A DNA stretch of 64,000 nucleotides from Halorhabdus sp. CBA1104 (GTDB lineage: Archaea > Halobacteriota > Halobacteria > Halobacteriales > Haloarculaceae). Every line of letters begins with the position of its first letter. Positions within the stretch are counted from its first letter, which is position 1. Where the stretch lies: NCBI RefSeq assembly GCF_009690625.1, contig NZ_CP033878.1, forward strand, positions 248,001-312,000, given 5' to 3'. The translations under genes were made by a program, and so were the position numbers. The notes beneath the pieces were generated by a model. It had not been told where the DNA came from and made no database searches. It saw only the letters and a list, made by a program, of their open reading frames with translations. Of this stretch, positions 21,515-59,103 are shown piece by piece.

Positions 21515-22828
21515 GTGACTGATAAATCAACGCAGACGACGCGGCGACAGTACCTACGCACAGCGGCAGGTATCGGCACGGTAGCAGCGATCGGCTCGAA
21601 AGCGAGTCAAAGTGGGACAGCGCAAGCGAGTTCGGGTGGTGAGGAAATCTGGCGGTATGAGACCGGCAATTCTCCCCACTCATCACCGACGGTGGTGGAT
21701 GGGACTGTCTACGTCGGGAGTTGGAACCTCTACGCGATAGATGCGGCGACGGGCGAGAAAGAGTGGGCCTTCGAGACTGGCAATTGGATCACCTCGCGAA
21801 TATCCAGCCCGACGGTAGCCGATGGGACTGTCTTCGTCGGGAGTGATGACTGCAACCTCTACGCGCTGGATGCGGCGACGGGCGAGAAAGAGTGGGCCTT
21901 TGAGACGGGCGCTGAGGTGAAGTCGTCACCGACGGTGGTAGATGGGACTGTCTTCGTCGGGAGTGATGACTACACCCTCTATGCGCTGAATGCGGCGACG
22001 GGCGAGAAAGAGTGGGCCTTCAAGCCCGGCTATTGGGTGGAATCGTCGCCGACGGTAGTGGATGGGACGGTCTTCGTCGGGAGTAACGACAAGAACCTCT
22101 ACGCGCTGAATGCGGCAACAGGCGAGAAAGAGTGGGCCTTCGAGACGGGCACCTACGTGTACTCGTCGCCGACGGTAGCCGATGGGACAGTCTTTGTCGG
22201 GAGTTACGACGACAACCTCTACGCTGTGGATGTGGCGACGGGCGAGAAAGAGTGGGCGTTCGAGACTGGCGATAGGGTGGACTCGTCGCCGACGATGGTG
22301 GACGGCACCGTCTTCGTCGGGAGTTGGGATGAAAACATCTACGCGCTGAATGCGGCGACGGGCGAGAAAGAGTGGGCTTTCGAGACTAGCGCCAGGGTGC
22401 GTTCGTCGCCGACGGTGGGCGATGGGACGGTCTTCGTCGGGAGTAACGACAACAACCTCTACGCGGTGGATGGGGCCACGGGCGAGAAAGAGTGGGCATT
22501 TGAGACGGACGGCAGGGTGGAGTCGTCGCCGACAGTGGTGGATGGAACCGTCTTCGTCGGGAGTAAGGATGAAAACATCTACGCGCTGGATGCTGGTATC
22601 GAAGGATCGAGCGAAGGCTCACGCGTCACACTCACCACGCTAGGCCAACACAACCAATCCCGCCCTGGTGAGTCCTTTACCGATTCCGCACCGGAGGGTG
22701 GACAATCGAACGCGAGCACATCGACGTCCGGTCCGGGATTGGGGGTCCTCGGTACAGTGATCAGTCTGGGGGGCGCAAGCTATCTCATTAGTCGAGCGAG
22801 AAACGGTAGCCAAGAGTCTGTAGAGTAG
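21515..22828 (+). CDS. Tat-exported PQQ-like beta-propeller protein
   Basis: A 437-residue secreted protein starting at GTG. The twin-arginine motif TRRQYLR (residues 9-15) is followed by a hydrophobic stretch and an Ala-rich cleavage region. Eight repeats of 40 residues (about 47-365) carry SSPTVVDGTVFVGS and ATGEKEWAF, the PQQ/WD-like propeller signature. A Ser/Thr-rich linker leads to a C-terminal membrane span (GPGLGVLGTVISLGG) and RAR, resembling archaeosortase PGF-type anchors but with Leu in place of Phe. The protein is probably cell-surface bound. PQQ-binding residues were not identified; a structural or binding role is likely. Confidence 0.85.
   Translation: MTDKSTQTTRRQYLRTAAGIGTVAAIGSKASQSGTAQASSGGEEIWRYETGNSPHSSPTVVDGTVYVGSWNLYAIDAATGEKEWAFETGNWITSRISSPTVADGTVFVGSDDCNLYALDAATGEKEWAFETGAEVKSSPTVVDGTVFVGSDDYTLYALNAATGEKEWAFKPGYWVESSPTVVDGTVFVGSNDKNLYALNAATGEKEWAFETGTYVYSSPTVADGTVFVGSYDDNLYAVDVATGEKEWAFETGDRVDSSPTMVDGTVFVGSWDENIYALNAATGEKEWAFETSARVRSSPTVGDGTVFVGSNDNNLYAVDGATGEKEWAFETDGRVESSPTVVDGTVFVGSKDENIYALDAGIEGSSEGSRVTLTTLGQHNQSRPGESFTDSAPEGGQSNASTSTSGPGLGVLGTVISLGGASYLISRARNGSQESVE
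21755..22596 (+). repeat. Tandem 120-bp repeats inside the propeller gene
   Basis: The block GGCGAGAAAGAGTGGGC recurs at intervals of 129 and then exactly 120 bp (starts near 21755, 21884, 22004, 22124, 22244, 22364 and 22484). Neighbouring copies are highly similar over most of their length at DNA level, so copy number could change by recombination. Confidence 0.9.
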
Positions 22829-23007
22829 TAACTGTCCTACTCGACGGTCTCGTTGATCTGCAGCTTCTTCGCGGAGCGACTAACTGACGTCGTCCCGAGA
22901 CGGTCAGGACCGCGGGTATTCGATTCAATCTTCAGAATTGGGGTGAGAACTATGGCGCTGGCTGACACTCCATATTGGTATATTATCTACACATCTAGAA
23001 ATCCAAA

Positions 23008-23023
23008 GCGAAATACTTATATT
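23008..23023 (+). promoter_or_regulatory. Promoter of the Tat protein gene
   Basis: GCGAAATACTTATATT gives a BRE (CGAAA) and a TATA element (CTTATATT) centred near 23018. The predicted transcript start is at about 23045, which is the GTG start codon, so the transcript is likely leaderless. Confidence 0.65.
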
Positions 23024-23044
23024 ATATACATAAATTCTCGGATT

Positions 23045-24114
23045 GTGGAAGAAACAACAAGACGGACCTTCCTGAAAAGCAGTAGTATCGCCGCAGGGCT
23101 ATTAGCTGGGTCGGCAGTAGTCAGCGCCAAAACAACAATAAAAACAAACTCAGAATCCGACGAGACTATAAAGATACGCTATCAGTAAAAGAAATAACTC
23201 ATCACCGTAATGATTTCATTGAGAGCGCAGATGGGGTTCACCCATCGGACATTCCTACAGCCAAACCAGTTGGGAAGACTGCAGACAAACAAGTAGCTGC
23301 GTATAATCTTGATTTAATAGATGGTGCAGTTCATGAATGGACAGGGGTGGTGCGTGGTAAACGGAATAATGACAGCGAATTCACCACCCACAAAAATTCA
23401 GGGAACAAAAAGGCACCAAAGGAAATAGTAGAGAATGTGCATAAAAAAGCCGATGAAGATGTACGAGTAAAACGAAAGAAAAAATCAAGACTTAACAATA
23501 ACCAAGTCGACGTGGCTAAAAAATCAGATGAGGTCGATTTTGATGTGGGTTGGGACGATATGGCATCAAATGACCACTGGGAAGAGGGCGAATGGGGGAC
23601 CACAATGGGATGGAATGTTCAATGGAAGAAAGCTCCCAATGCAGAAAGCGTTCACGGAGTCAAAGCTCATGTTAATTTGAAGCCCGGAAAAGAACATCCA
23701 ATCATTAAAGATCGTGCGGAAAAGGCAATCTTGAAGCAGAATTACAACCACGCAGACGTGTTTTCCGAAGATTATCGTCCCTATAACACTAATGGCCAGG
23801 CTAGTGAGTCTTGGAGTATTGGCGTAACTGCAGGCAGTGATACAGTAAATGTTGGGGTTGAACATTCAACACAACATTCGAAGAAGGATATGGAGATCCA
23901 TGATGACAGTGCTGTAAATGACCCAGATCTCCAAAATATGGAACATACGTACGATATTAGTAACGATCTCCGAAAGCATACTGTCCGGGCTACTCAATTT
24001 GGGATTGTAGAAGTGGATGACAAAGACAAAGATGGAGAAAAATTTGCATACATTGATCTCCAGGGTGAATTCAAACAATGCGACATCCAAAACGGGTACG
24101 ATTACTATTGGTGA
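23045..24114 (+). CDS. Tat-signal protein of unknown function, frameshifted
   Basis: The GTG at 23045 begins a Tat signal (VEETTRRTFLKSSSIAAGL) that ends at a stop at 23186-23188. The -1 frame is open from 23086 to 24114 and continues the mature protein. Adding one base near 23173 (TATAAAGAT read as TATAAAAGAT) would join ESDETIK to DTLSVKEITHH in a 356-residue protein. The mature part is lysine- and asparagine-rich, hydrophilic and AT-rich, unlike other genes here, and has no recognisable domain. It may be horizontally acquired. Real pseudogene, consensus error or programmed shift are all possible; confidence is in the combined reading. Confidence 0.6.
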
Positions 24115-24619
24115 CATAAGCCAATAGTATAGAATCATATATAACTAACCAGTACGGACGGATATATTTTCTCTATGGAGGCGGACTTGATTGTTTCTTG
24201 TTGCCCTCGAAGGAGATAATGAAGATAGCACCAATTCCACAGGCCGCGAGTAACCCTATTGCCGCTGGTGAGTCCGGCACCACATAGATAACACACTGGC
24301 CCCGATGACAGACGTCAATAGCGTCACAATCAGCGTTCGATCCGTATTGAGACACAATGGGGGCTGATCGATGAGTTCAAGGCCAACATAGTGGCGGACG
24401 GTCAGCAGGGCAACGATGATTTTAGAAAATCAGTCTTCAAGTGGGTCGCTACGTACCAGGCTCAGGACCGCGGGAACAACAAGGATATGAACAGTACTGC
24501 TATGATCATGTATATGTCTACCTTCGTATGTGATATTTGAACGGGTTCTGCACTACATCCTCTGTCTGATGTAATGTGCTTTGGTGTGGTCCCACGGTCG
24601 GGAGCGGGACTAAGCTGCG
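24115..24619. other. Low-GC region with a possible gene remnant
   Basis: No complete gene is supported. A + strand frame from 24322 to 24540 is open and protein-like (IDEFKANIVADGQQGNDDF...) with GC-rich third positions but has no good start, so it may be the end of a decayed gene. A minus-strand GTG frame (24173-24355, 60 residues, one membrane span) overlaps it; both cannot be real. TCAGGACCGCGGG at 24462 repeats a site at 22904. Confidence 0.35.
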
Positions 24620-42131: not shown

Positions 42132-43354
42132 ATGGCTGCATTCAACACGCTCGATGACCTCGCAGATGGACAGCGTGTCCTGGTCCGCGTCGACCTCAAC
42201 TCCCCAGTCGAGGACGGCGTCGTCCAGGACAACCACCGCTTTGACCGCTATGCGGAGACGGTCCGCGAACTCGCCGATCGGGACAACAAAGTCGTCCTGA
42301 TGGCCCACCAGGGCCGGCCCGGCCGCGACGACTTCGTTTCGCTGGACCAGCACGCCGAAATTCTCGAAGAATACGTCGGTAAGCCGATCACCTTCATCGA
42401 GGATACCGTCGGCGACGACGCTATCGACGCCATCGAGGCGCTCGAAGCCGGAGAGATCCTGCTGCTCGAGAACACCCGGATGGTCGACGACGAACTGCCC
42501 GAGAAGGCCCCGAGGAACACGCCGACAGCGACTTCGTGAAGACGCTCTCGCCGTACTTCGACGCCTTCGTCAACGATGCGTACTCGGCGGCCCACCGCGC
42601 CCACGCCTCGACGGTCGGGTTCGCACTGGCACTGCCGGCCTATGCGGGCCGCGTCATGGAAGCCGAATACGAGTACAACACGGGCGTCGCCGAGCGCGCC
42701 CGCGAGACCGAGGGCCAGGTCACGATGGTCCTGGGTGGCAACAAGTCCGAAGACGTCATCAGCGTCGTCAACAATCTGGGCGACGCCATCGACACGTTCC
42801 TCATCGGCGGCCTGCCGGGCGAACTGTTCCTCCGCGCGGAGGGCAAGTCTGTCGGCTACGACGTCGGTGGGATGGACCTGCTTGACGACCAGTGGGACGA
42901 GACCAAAGACACGCTCGAAGACCTCGTTGCCAACCGTCGTGAGGAGTTCGAACTCCCCGTCGACTTCGCCTACGAGGACGCTGAGGGCGAACGCGCAGAG
43001 ATCGCGCTGGCGGACATCGAGGAGAAAGAGACCGGCTACCTCGACATCGGCCACGACACCATCGAGGAGTACGTGCCGATCATCGAGGACAGCGAGGCCG
43101 TCTTCGTGAAGGGCGCGGTCGGCGTCTTCGAAGACGAGCGTTTCGCCGATGGGACAGTCGAACTCATCGATGCGATCGGTCGGACAGAGTGCTTCTCGGT
43201 CGTCGGTGGCGGTGACACCGCCCGGACGCTGTCGATGTACGGACTCGACGAGGACGACTACGATCACATCTCCATCGCCGGCGGCGCGTACCTCAACGCC
43301 CTCACCGGCCAGGAACTCGAAGCTGCCGAAGTGCTGATCGAGCAGGCCGACTGA
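42132..43354 (+). CDS. pgk: Phosphoglycerate kinase, frameshifted in this sequence
   Basis: The N-terminal half (MAAFNTLDDLADGQRVLVRV...LLLENTRMV) and the C-terminal half (from DFVKTLSPYFDAF to the end, with VVGGGDTARTLSMYG) are both intact PGK. They are joined by a one-base deletion in the C4 run at 42508-42511: the first frame reads on to a stop at 42537-42539, while the +1 frame gives APEEHADSDFVKTL. Adding one C restores a 407-residue enzyme of normal length. PGK is essential for glycolysis, so a consensus error is likely. It transfers phosphate from 1,3-bisphosphoglycerate to ADP. Confidence 0.9.
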
Positions 43355-47529: not shown

Positions 47530-48180
47530 ATGACCGACTCGACACAGCGGGTAGGGCTGCCTTGTCCGGCCTGTTCGCCCGACTTGGAGACTGTTCACGA
47601 CGTTCTCAACCACGGCGGGCAGGCGACGGTTCGATGTACCGAGTGTGACCACGTTCACAAGACCTCTCTCCCCGAGGCACGGACTGTCGAACGGGATGTC
47701 GTCGTCTCACAGGACGGTGAATCGTTCACGGCGACGGCCGAACCGCCCGCCGATGAAACCTTGGCCGTCGGCGAAGAGTTCGTCTTAGAGACCGCGGACG
47801 CGATCATGACGGTCCGGATCACCAGTCTCGAACTCGACGAGGAGGGCCGAGTCGAGGAGGCACCTGTCGAGGACGTCCAGACGATCTGGACGCGCGCGGT
47901 GGGCAACGTCAGCGTCAACGCGACGGTCCACCCCAAGTCGGGAGCCCGTGACGAGACGCGAAGTGAGACGCTGCACGTCCCTGGCGACTACGAGTTCGTC
48001 GTCGGCGAAACTGACGAACTGGGTGAGTTCACCTATACGATCGAGGGCATTCACCTCCGGGACGACGCCCGCGGCTACGAGTACGAGAAACTCGACCACG
48101 ACCGGGATAGTGCCCCCGCCAAGGACGTCAATCGACTTTACCTCCGAGACGAGACCAGCGACGCCTGGTCGGCGTGGTAG
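47530..48180 (+). CDS. Zinc-finger protein of the HVO_0476 type
   Basis: A 216-residue protein. The N-terminal zinc ribbon has CPACSPDL and CTECDHVH. The rest is a beta-rich domain (VGNVSVNATVHPKSGARDE, GDYEFVVGETDEL) with an acidic surface. Relatives occur across haloarchaea with the name HVO_0476 family (from memory). Function unknown. The stop is 2 bp before the start of the PCMT gene, so the two are coupled. Confidence 0.75.
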   Translation: MTDSTQRVGLPCPACSPDLETVHDVLNHGGQATVRCTECDHVHKTSLPEARTVERDVVVSQDGESFTATAEPPADETLAVGEEFVLETADAIMTVRITSLELDEEGRVEEAPVEDVQTIWTRAVGNVSVNATVHPKSGARDETRSETLHVPGDYEFVVGETDELGEFTYTIEGIHLRDDARGYEYEKLDHDRDSAPAKDVNRLYLRDETSDAWSAW

Positions 48181-48182
48181 GG

Positions 48183-48878
48183 ATGGCCCGCTGGTGGGGT
48201 TCGGACCGCGATCGTGCTGCGACAGACGGAGGAGACGACAACTGGCGACAGCGACGCACTGCCCTGATCGAGGACCTCAGAGAGCGCGACCGGGTGAGCG
48301 ATCGAGCCCTGGACGCGCTTGCGGCCGTGCCGCGACACGCATTCGTCCCCCAGTCTAGCCGTCGAGGGGCCTACGCCGACCGTCCGCTGTCGATCGGCGA
48401 GGGCCAGACCATCAGCGCCCCGCACATGGTCGCGATCATGGTCGATCGCCTCGACCTCGAACCCGGCCAGGAGGTCGTAGAGATCGGCACGGGGTGTGGC
48501 TATCACGCTGCCGTCACCGCCGAAGTCGTCGGGGCCGAGCACGTCTACAGTGTCGAATATCACGCCTCGCTTGCGACACAGGCCCGCGAGCGGTTAGCCG
48601 ACCTGGGCTACGGCGACGTGTCAGTCCGTGTCGGCGATGGCCACGAGGGCTGGCCGGCACACGCCCCCTACGACCGGGCGTATCTCACCTGTGCAGCGAC
48701 GGATATCCCGCCTGCCGTCCTCGATCAACTCCGGCCCGATGGCGTCTTTCTCGGGCCGATCGGTACGCGTTCACAGCGACTGGTCCGGGTCAGCAAGCAT
48801 CCGGACGGCTCGACGGAGCGTGAGGACTTCGGTGGGGTCCGATTCGTCCAGATGCAGGGTAGCGACGAGTCGCCGTGA
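48183..48878 (+). CDS. pcm: Protein-L-isoaspartate O-methyltransferase
   Basis: A 231-residue enzyme. Motifs: AVPRHAFVPQ, GQTISAPHMVAIM (the isoaspartate-binding loop) and VEIGTGCGYHAAV (SAM-binding motif I). It repairs isoaspartyl residues in damaged proteins. The start ATG 48183 directly follows the HVO_0476-type gene. A divergent paralogue follows 62 bp downstream. Confidence 0.92.
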   Translation: MARWWGSDRDRAATDGGDDNWRQRRTALIEDLRERDRVSDRALDALAAVPRHAFVPQSSRRGAYADRPLSIGEGQTISAPHMVAIMVDRLDLEPGQEVVEIGTGCGYHAAVTAEVVGAEHVYSVEYHASLATQARERLADLGYGDVSVRVGDGHEGWPAHAPYDRAYLTCAATDIPPAVLDQLRPDGVFLGPIGTRSQRLVRVSKHPDGSTEREDFGGVRFVQMQGSDESP

Positions 48879-57277: not shown

Positions 57278-59103
57278 ATGAGTCAGGGACGCGAAGCCAA
57301 AGTCTACGTCAACGGAAGTCTCGTCGGGACCCATCCCGAACCGGAACAGCTCGCAAACCAGGTACGCGAAGCTCGCCGCCGTGGCGAGGTCAGCGAGATG
57401 GTCAACGTCTCGGTCAAAGACCGTACCGACGAGGTTATCATCAACGCCGACGCCGGCCGGGCCCGCCGCCCACTGTTGGTCATTCGTGACGGTGAGCCAC
57501 TCGTCTCCGAGGAAGAGATCGAGGCGGTCAAAGACGGCGACCTCTCCTTTGAGGATCTCGTCGACCGGGGCTACGTGGAGTTCATCGACGCCGAGGAGGA
57601 AGAGGACATCCTCGTTGCGGTCGATAAAGACGAACTCACGGAAGACCACACCCACCTCGAAGTCGACCCACAACTCATCTTCGGGATCGGTGCCGGGATG
57701 ATCCCCTATCCCGAACACAACGCGAGCCCGCGGATTACGATGGGGTCGGGGATGATCAAGCAGAGTCTGGGGCTGCCAAGTGCGAACTACCGGGTTCGCC
57801 CGGACACGCGCCAGCACTTGCTGCACTACCCGCAGCTGTCGATGGTCAAGACCCAGACGACCGAACAGATCGGCTACGACGACCGGCCGGCGGCCCAGAA
57901 CTTCACGGTCGCGGTCATGTCCTACGAGGGATTCAACATCGAGGACGCCCTCGTCATGAACCGAGGATCGGTCGAACGCGCCCTCTCGCGGTCGCACTTC
58001 TTCCGGACGTACGAGGGGGAGGAACGCCGCTATCCGGGCGGTCAGGAAGACCGCTTCGAGATCCCGGACGACGAAGTGCGGGGCGCTCGCGGCGAAGACG
58101 CCTACACGCAACTCGACGAGGACGGCCTCGTCAACCCCGAGACGAAGGTCGGCGAGAACGCTGTCCTGCTCGGCAAGACAAGCCCGCCCCGGTTCCTCGA
58201 AGAGCCGGACGATATGGGCGGCCTCAGCCCGCAAAAGCGCCGTGAAACGTCAGTGACGATGCGATCCGGCGAGAGTGGGGTCGTCGACACGGTGACGCTT
58301 ATGGAGGGTGAGGATGGCTCGAAACTCTCGAAGGTCAAGGTCCGTGACGAGCGGATCCCGGAACTCGGGGACAAGTTCGCCTCGCGACACGGCCAGAAGG
58401 GTGTCGTTGGCCACCTTGCCCCCAGGAAGACATGCCATTTACCGAACAGGGTGTCGTCCCCGACCTCATTTTGAACCCCCACGCACTCCCCTCGCGGATG
58501 ACTGTCGGGCACATTCTGGAGATGATCGGCGGGAAGGTCGGTGCCCTGGAAGGTCGCCGCGTCGATGGGACCGCTTTCACTGGCGAGGACGAAGAAGAAC
58601 TCCGCGATTCCTTGGAGGATCACGGCTTCAAGTCCTCGGGGAAGGAGGTCATGTACTCGGGCATCACGGGCGAGAAGATCGAGGCCGAGATCTTCGTCGG
58701 GACCATCTTCTACCAGAAACTCTACCACATGGTCTCGAACAAGATCCACGCCCGTTCGCGTGGTCCGGTCCAGGTGTTGACTCGCCAGCCGACCGAGGGG
58801 CGTGCCCGCGAGGGTGGGCTCCGGATCGGGGAGATGGAACGGGACGTCTTCATCGGGCACGGTGCCGCCTTGACGCTCAAAGAGCGCCTGCTCGATGAGT
58901 CAGACCAGGAGTGGATCAACGTCTGTGGACAGTGTGGGATGACCGCCGTCGAGAACGTCGATCAACGCCGCGTCTACTGTCCCAACTGCGATGAGGAGAC
59001 CGACGTCCACGAGGTCGAGATGAGTTACGCGTTCAAACTCCTCTTAGACGAGATGAAAGCGTTGGGTATCGCGCCGCGGATCGAACTGGAGGATGCAGTA
59101 TGA
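57278..59103 (+). CDS. rpoB1: RNA polymerase subunit B' (C-terminal half of B), frameshifted
   Basis: The frame from 57278 carries [12 protein letters not shown] and [14 protein letters not shown], then fails: a C5 run (58421-58425) where six C are expected sends it to a stop at 58472. The following frame continues with [30 protein letters not shown], and the zinc ribbon CGQCG ... CPNC to 59103. Adding one C gives 608 residues, the usual B' length. It is essential, so a consensus error is likely. It overlaps rpoA' by 4 bp. Confidence 0.93.

What the first reader, a model, noticed from the sequence alone, without database searches (positions are those of the whole stretch)
23045..24114. Frameshifted, AT-rich Tat-exported protein of unknown family
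A perfect promoter and leaderless GTG start a Tat signal, but the mature part continues only in the -1 frame after about 23173. The deletion (one A in TATAAAGAT) is of the same kind as in pgk and rpoB', so the gene may be intact. The mature protein is lysine- and asparagine-rich, hydrophilic and unlike its host's acidic proteome, which hints at transfer. It has no family I recognise and could be a secreted toxin, adhesin or enzyme.
Basis: partly seen in the sequence, partly recalled or inferred. Interest (0 to 1): 0.6.

Follow-up and report, generated by a model that had tools for sequence, protein, structure and literature searches.

The report
Frameshifted haloarchaeal Tat-secreted protein with propeller neighbour
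A salt-loving archaeon carries a broken-looking gene for an exported protein that turns out to belong to an unnamed but widespread haloarchaeal family, often sitting beside a surface propeller protein or a tiny membrane protein in the way toxin genes sit beside immunity genes; its function is still untested.

Summary
An adjacent membrane-protein gene is genuinely decayed, so real decay is not excluded.

The protein is not family-less. Profile searches find matches in 56 of 391 haloarchaeal genomes. Members are two-module Tat proteins, absent from Pfam, NCBIfam, PHROGs, PADLOC and PDB. An intact homologue lies on a Natrinema plasmid. In 12 of 54 loci a PQQ beta-propeller gene is a neighbour, usually in tight operons; other members carry small two-TM proteins or an unrelated secreted protein. 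The gene predates this species: a sister species keeps its last eight codons and stop as a deletion scar, another lost it cleanly, and both keep the propeller intact.

Best reading (moderate confidence): a halocin-like secreted antagonist with exchangeable surface immunity partners, here a near-identical-blade propeller. No activity is shown; chaperone, adhesion or pseudogene remain open.

The parts
23009..23022 (+). BRE/TATA-like promoter CGAAATACTTATAT, about 26-28 nt before the GTG, consistent with a leaderless transcript
   Evidence: only match in the window to CGAAANNNTTATAT with up to 1 mismatch, chance mean 0.12; sequence
23045..23188 (+). Tat signal ORF (47 aa, TRRTFLK...AVVSA), cut short by the frame change
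   Evidence: family profile positions 7-43
23128..23149 (+). interval that must hold the frame change (A-rich tract after the signal, before LRIRRD)
   Evidence: Tat frame matches profile 7-43, mature frame matches from 27; LRIRRD at 23149 aligns to the intact Natrinema protein
23149..23490 (+). N-module of the mature protein (LRIRRD..VKEI..AAYNLDLIDGAVHEWTGVV..VHKKAD)
   Evidence: alignments A1/A5; boundary set by members in which N- and C-modules are separate genes
23491..24114 (+). C-module of the mature protein, predicted beta-rich (RPYNTNGQASESWSIGVTAGSDTVNVGVEHS...), ending QNGYDYYW-stop
   Evidence: low-confidence model
21515..22828 (+). neighbouring Tat-exported PQQ/BamB-like beta-propeller, about 8 near-identical 40-aa blades, PGF-CTERM-like C-terminus; intact in sister species
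   Evidence: PF13360 5e-87; TIGR04126 21.0 bits, below its 24.5 cut-off; 120-nt repeats 80-84% identical; orthologues dN/dS 0.35-0.39
22966..24141 (+). segment absent from sister genome G144; G318 has a matching deletion that leaves the last 8 codons and stop
24160..24560 (-). broken multi-TM membrane-protein gene, convergent with the Tat gene; intact (134 aa) in G144

Best explanation
The locus encodes a member of an unnamed haloarchaeal family of Tat-exported two-module proteins that most likely acts as a halocin-like secreted antagonist. Proposed steps: (1) the twin-arginine signal exports the protein (consensus signal shown; export inferred); (2) the N-module carries or holds the beta-rich C-module, which in some relatives is a separate, signal-less gene directly downstream (gene arrangement shown, role inferred); (3) the C-module acts on neighbouring cells by binding or membrane damage rather than catalysis (inferred from the lack of invariant catalytic-type residues); (4) the producer protects itself with a linked, exchangeable partner: here the surface-anchored near-identical-blade PQQ propeller, elsewhere a small two-TM protein or a 330-aa secreted protein (linkage shown, immunity inferred). 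In this assembly the window copy has one frame change between signal and N-module, either an assembly error or a recent lesion.
For: A family of 54 examined loci across haloarchaea, matches in 56 of 391 genomes. Twin arginines conserved in 45 of 45 aligned members, first R 44 of 45. A PQQ propeller is a direct neighbour in 12 of 54 loci, 11 on the same strand, most within 160 bp, while no propeller recognised by the profile lies elsewhere in those loci (P about 1e-10). Small two-TM ORFs lie just downstream in 8 of 53 loci against 0.8% at random positions, and a third partner type in 4 loci. Partner types alternate on the tree. N- and C-modules are separate adjacent genes in the same genome's second locus and in G089, G318 and G321. 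Members are very divergent (median 17% identity), patchy, and several lie next to integrases or transposases. In sister species the gene is lost but the propeller is kept under purifying selection, as orphan immunity genes are.
Against: No known toxin domain, no solved-structure relative, and no usable structure model (pLDDT 38). No activity data. About 30 of 54 loci show none of the three partner types. PQQ propellers are common, general protein-binding modules (PMC9218822), so the propeller may have its own function; it is as old as much of the genus at this locus and is found there without the gene. The two-TM count is inflated to an unknown degree by AT-rich DNA. The window copy is frameshifted and its downstream membrane gene has decayed.
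Confidence: 0.45

Rival explanations
1. Surface assembly or adhesion pair: the propeller is a BamB-like chaperone or scaffold for a beta-rich secreted protein that has a structural or attachment role, with no antagonism.
For: Tight operons (gaps about 4-55 bp in several loci), both partners exported, PQQ propellers known to bind proteins (PMC9218822), beta-rich C-module (weak).
Against: Partner type changes between close family members (two-TM, 330-aa protein, propeller), which a dedicated chaperone would not explain; extreme divergence and patchy presence; the propeller persists without the secreted protein in sister species.
Confidence: 0.25
2. The window copy is a decaying pseudogene: the frameshift is real and the protein is no longer made in full.
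For: Downstream membrane gene broken by several indels in the window; two sister species have deleted this gene.
Against: Only one lesion in 1.07 kb and 320 clean codons after it; the same assembly has shifts in the essential genes pgk and rpoB'; promoter and start are intact.
Confidence: 0.2
3. Secreted enzyme or other exoprotein unrelated to conflict.
For: Export and wide distribution.
Against: In 48 aligned members the conserved positions after the signal are structural (P, G, Y, W, S); no invariant catalytic pair.
Confidence: 0.08

Closest known systems
Natrinema sp. SYSU A 869 plasmid protein WP_222913911.1 (hypothetical)
   Same: Full homologue (27-29% identity over about 89% of the query), intact Tat signal in frame, LRIRRD block, PQQ propeller gene upstream
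   Different: Acidic (pI 4.1 against 5.7); on an 881-kb plasmid near an integrase and an IS5 transposase; its propeller gene is itself split between frames
Halobiforma haloterrestris DSM 13078 homologue (L029, same as G320)
   Same: 26-28% identity, Tat signal, low GC, PQQ lipoprotein-type propeller 21 bp downstream
   Different: An in-frame TAA separates N- and C-modules, at about the place where other members are two genes
Halocins, for example halocin H4 of Haloferax mediterranei
   Same: Works-like comparison: Tat-type signal and a secreted haloarchaeal protein of about 360 aa
   Different: No similarity beyond the signal in a profile test (H4 sequence recalled from memory); no activity known here
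Polymorphic toxin-immunity systems (PMC3482391, seen; archaeal survey mBio 2019 e00715-19, not readable here)
   Same: Divergent exported protein with variable linked partner genes in mobile contexts
   Different: No recognised toxin domain or trafficking domain; Tat export instead
Highly repetitive PQQ beta-propellers (PMC9218822)
   Same: Neighbour propeller has near-identical blades; that paper links some highly repetitive propellers (WRAP, VCBS) to innate immunity or self-recognition
   Different: No published link of PQQ propellers to haloarchaeal secreted antagonists was found in the library searched

Membership tests
Tat-exported proteins | Twin-arginine signal (S/T-R-R-x-F-L-K plus hydrophobic stretch) | tested here: met
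   TRRTFLK in the 23045 ORF; TIGR01409 above cut-off; RR conserved across the family
Unnamed two-module Tat family (profile A5) | Profile match over N- and C-modules | tested here: met
   Mature frame matches positions 27-365 at E 1.7e-99, though the window is in the profile; independent tests: G320 E 1e-14 and Natrinema E 1e-13 with the window alone as query
Unnamed two-module Tat family (profile A5) | Signal and mature part in one frame | tested here: not met
   Two frames in this assembly; may be an assembly error
Halocin H4 | Sequence similarity beyond the signal | tested here: inconclusive
Halocins | Inhibits other haloarchaea | not testable with these tools
   needs a lawn assay
Polymorphic toxin-immunity systems | Linked, variable partner gene | tested here: met
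   12 propeller, 8 two-TM, 4 330-aa partner loci
Polymorphic toxin-immunity systems | Recognised toxin domain | tested here: not met
   no significant Pfam, NCBIfam or PHROGs family
Polymorphic toxin-immunity systems | Partner neutralises the toxin | not testable with these tools
   needs expression and binding assays
Anti-phage defence systems | Match to a PADLOC model | tested here: not met
   no match for the protein, the propeller or the Natrinema homologue
Fil_haemagg_2 adhesins | Pfam gathering score | tested here: not met
   15.8 bits against 22

The most novel reading that the evidence does not exclude
Haloarchaea share a widespread, undescribed antagonism system in which a Tat-exported two-module protein, sometimes encoded as two adjacent genes, is neutralised at the producer's surface by exchangeable partners, including beta-propellers with freshly amplified blades; some lineages keep the propeller as orphan immunity after losing the toxin.
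Probability: 0.35. Interest if true: 0.75.

Novelty: new variant of a known kind. Interest (0 to 1): 0.5.

Why it matters
Few archaeal secreted antagonists have known genes, and their immunity proteins are scarcely known. A family found in about one in seven haloarchaeal genomes sampled, with linked candidate immunity genes of three kinds, would make producer self-protection in haloarchaea directly testable. The sister-species comparison (gene lost, propeller kept) gives ready-made test strains. If the family is not antagonistic, it is still a common unnamed exported family with a conserved partner.

Tried and rejected
Pfam, NCBIfam, PHROGs, PADLOC and PDB sequence searches: no family. Phage and viral contigs: no relative. 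GTDB contig scans by peptide pattern: only the Halobiforma homologue; the deeper profile was too divergent for patterns. AlphaFold2 with two sequences: pLDDT 38, pTM 0.28, not interpretable, so no fold search was run. Loci from the genome search were not sent to the structure tool because its stated rule does not list them. Halocin H4 membership: no support. The HapP precursor paper (PMC12893001) was read as a lead; no sequence was compared. The idea that low GC shows recent transfer was dropped after the family comparison and the scar in G318. The idea that the propeller arrived with the gene was dropped: it sits at this locus across most of the genus.

Full report
What was checked. The Tat ORF starts at GTG 23045 and stops at 23188. 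The rest of the protein is open in the -1 frame from 23086 to 24114, 342 codons. A BRE/TATA-like element sits at 23009-23022, the only match in the window, at leaderless spacing from the GTG. Homology moves it: the mature frame already reads LRIRRD at 23149, and the intact Natrinema homologue has ...SLRIRRDTSDPVSPAEI... directly after its Tat signal. The family profile matches the Tat frame at positions 7-43 and the mature frame from position 27. So the shift lies in the A-rich stretch between about 23128 and 23149.

Is the shift real? pgk is whole in three sister genomes but split between two frames here, and the catalytic region of rpoB' is split here but whole in two. Both splits fall at or beside C runs. 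These genes are essential, so the assembly has homopolymer indel errors. That makes an artefact plausible in the A-rich tract. Against this, a membrane-protein gene on the minus strand just downstream (about 24160-24560), intact as 134 codons in sister genome G144, is broken by several indels in the window and is also broken in G318, so real decay is going on at this locus. Artefact and recent lesion are about equally likely, with a slight lean to artefact.

What family is it? With the window protein alone, one of 391 class genomes besides its own matched (G320, E 1e-14), later identified as Halobiforma haloterrestris DSM 13078 by contig, and one plasmid matched, Natrinema sp. SYSU A 869. A profile of these three found 11 genomes, and a 12-member profile found 56 of 391. 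Fifty-four loci were examined in detail. The weakest profile hits cover only the signal region and are not counted as secure members. The family has a Tat signal (twin arginines in 45 of 45 aligned members, first R 44 of 45), an N-module (R-G-x-x-x-D-P-I-S ... V-A-Y-N ... D-G ... G-x-V ... H-x-x-A-D) and a beta-rich C-module. Median pairwise identity is 17% and no catalytic-type residue is invariant. No Pfam, NCBIfam, PHROGs, PADLOC or PDB entry describes it.

Modules can be separate genes. In the window's own genome a second locus (L059; G000:C1 about 1441968-1443382) has an N-module with a Tat signal, a signal-less C-module starting just after its stop codon, and a 61-aa two-TM protein. The same N-then-C order is seen in G089, G318 and G321, and Halobiforma has a stop codon at the boundary. 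Some splits may themselves be sequencing errors, but they recur at one boundary.

Partners. A PQQ beta-propeller gene is a direct neighbour in 12 of 54 loci (window, Natrinema, Halobiforma, G203, G307, G059, G268, G164, G115, G046, G123, G181), 11 on the same strand, often 4-55 bp away; no propeller recognised by the profile lies elsewhere in those loci. In Natrinema the gap is about 740 bp. Under a simple random-placement model the chance is about 1e-10 or less. This model assumes one gene per kb and a uniform propeller density of 0.3-1% of genes; the genomes hold from 11 to 54 PQQ stretches each. Two-TM ORFs lie within 300 bp downstream in 8 of 53 loci against 0.8% at random positions, though AT-rich DNA favours hydrophobic ORFs, so the contrast is overstated; three of them share a GIQIT-like motif by eye. 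A 330-aa secreted protein accompanies four related members. Partner types alternate on the tree, where many deep nodes are weak. About 30 loci have no recognised partner.

History of the window gene. Sister genomes G144 and G318 have the same order NIF3-like gene, propeller, downstream gene. G144 lacks window 22966-24141 cleanly. G318 lacks most of it but keeps a stretch that reads QNAYEYSW-stop against QNGYDYYW-stop in the window, 43 of 52 bases identical. The gene therefore predates the split from G318 and was lost, at least once and probably twice; recent gain in this species is not supported. The propeller is intact in both, with dN/dS 0.35-0.39. Three other genus members have a propeller of only about 26% identity at the same place with no recognisable family gene beside it, and G268 has none there but has its own family gene plus propeller elsewhere. 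The window propeller has about eight near-identical blades (120-nt repeats, 80-84% identical), and differences between orthologues cluster by eye in the loops (not tested statistically).

Interpretation. Exported, divergent, patchy proteins with exchangeable linked partners, where the partner persists after the protein is lost, fit a toxin-immunity arrangement. That is inference from context. The persistence of the propeller fits equally well with an independent propeller function. PQQ propellers are general protein binders, and a study of highly repetitive propellers links some other classes to innate immunity or self-recognition (PMC9218822). No paper found in the library describes this pair; the most relevant archaeal survey (mBio 2019 e00715-19) could not be read, so prior description cannot be ruled out. 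The structure model was unusable.

Verdict.

Noticed in passing
window 21515-22828: PQQ propeller with about eight near-identical 40-aa blades; orthologues in sister species differ mainly in short loops, which by eye looks like diversification of one face.
   Followed up: partly
window 24160-24560 (minus strand): Multi-TM membrane-protein gene intact in sister genome G144 (134 aa) but broken by several indels here and in G318.
   Followed up: partly
window 42132-43351 and about 57692-58809: pgk and rpoB' are split between frames in this assembly but whole in sister species, pointing to homopolymer errors at C runs.
   Followed up: yes
window 47894-48860: A further gene matches a sister-genome ORF (L080) in two frames, possibly another assembly frameshift.
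   Followed up: no
L059 7975-9381 (G000:C1 about 1441974-1443380): Second family locus in the same genome: N-module with Tat signal, separate signal-less C-module, then a 61-aa two-TM protein; same order in G089 (L099).
   Followed up: partly
L003 3848-5105: The propeller gene next to the Natrinema homologue is itself split between frames in a plasmid record marked complete.
   Followed up: no
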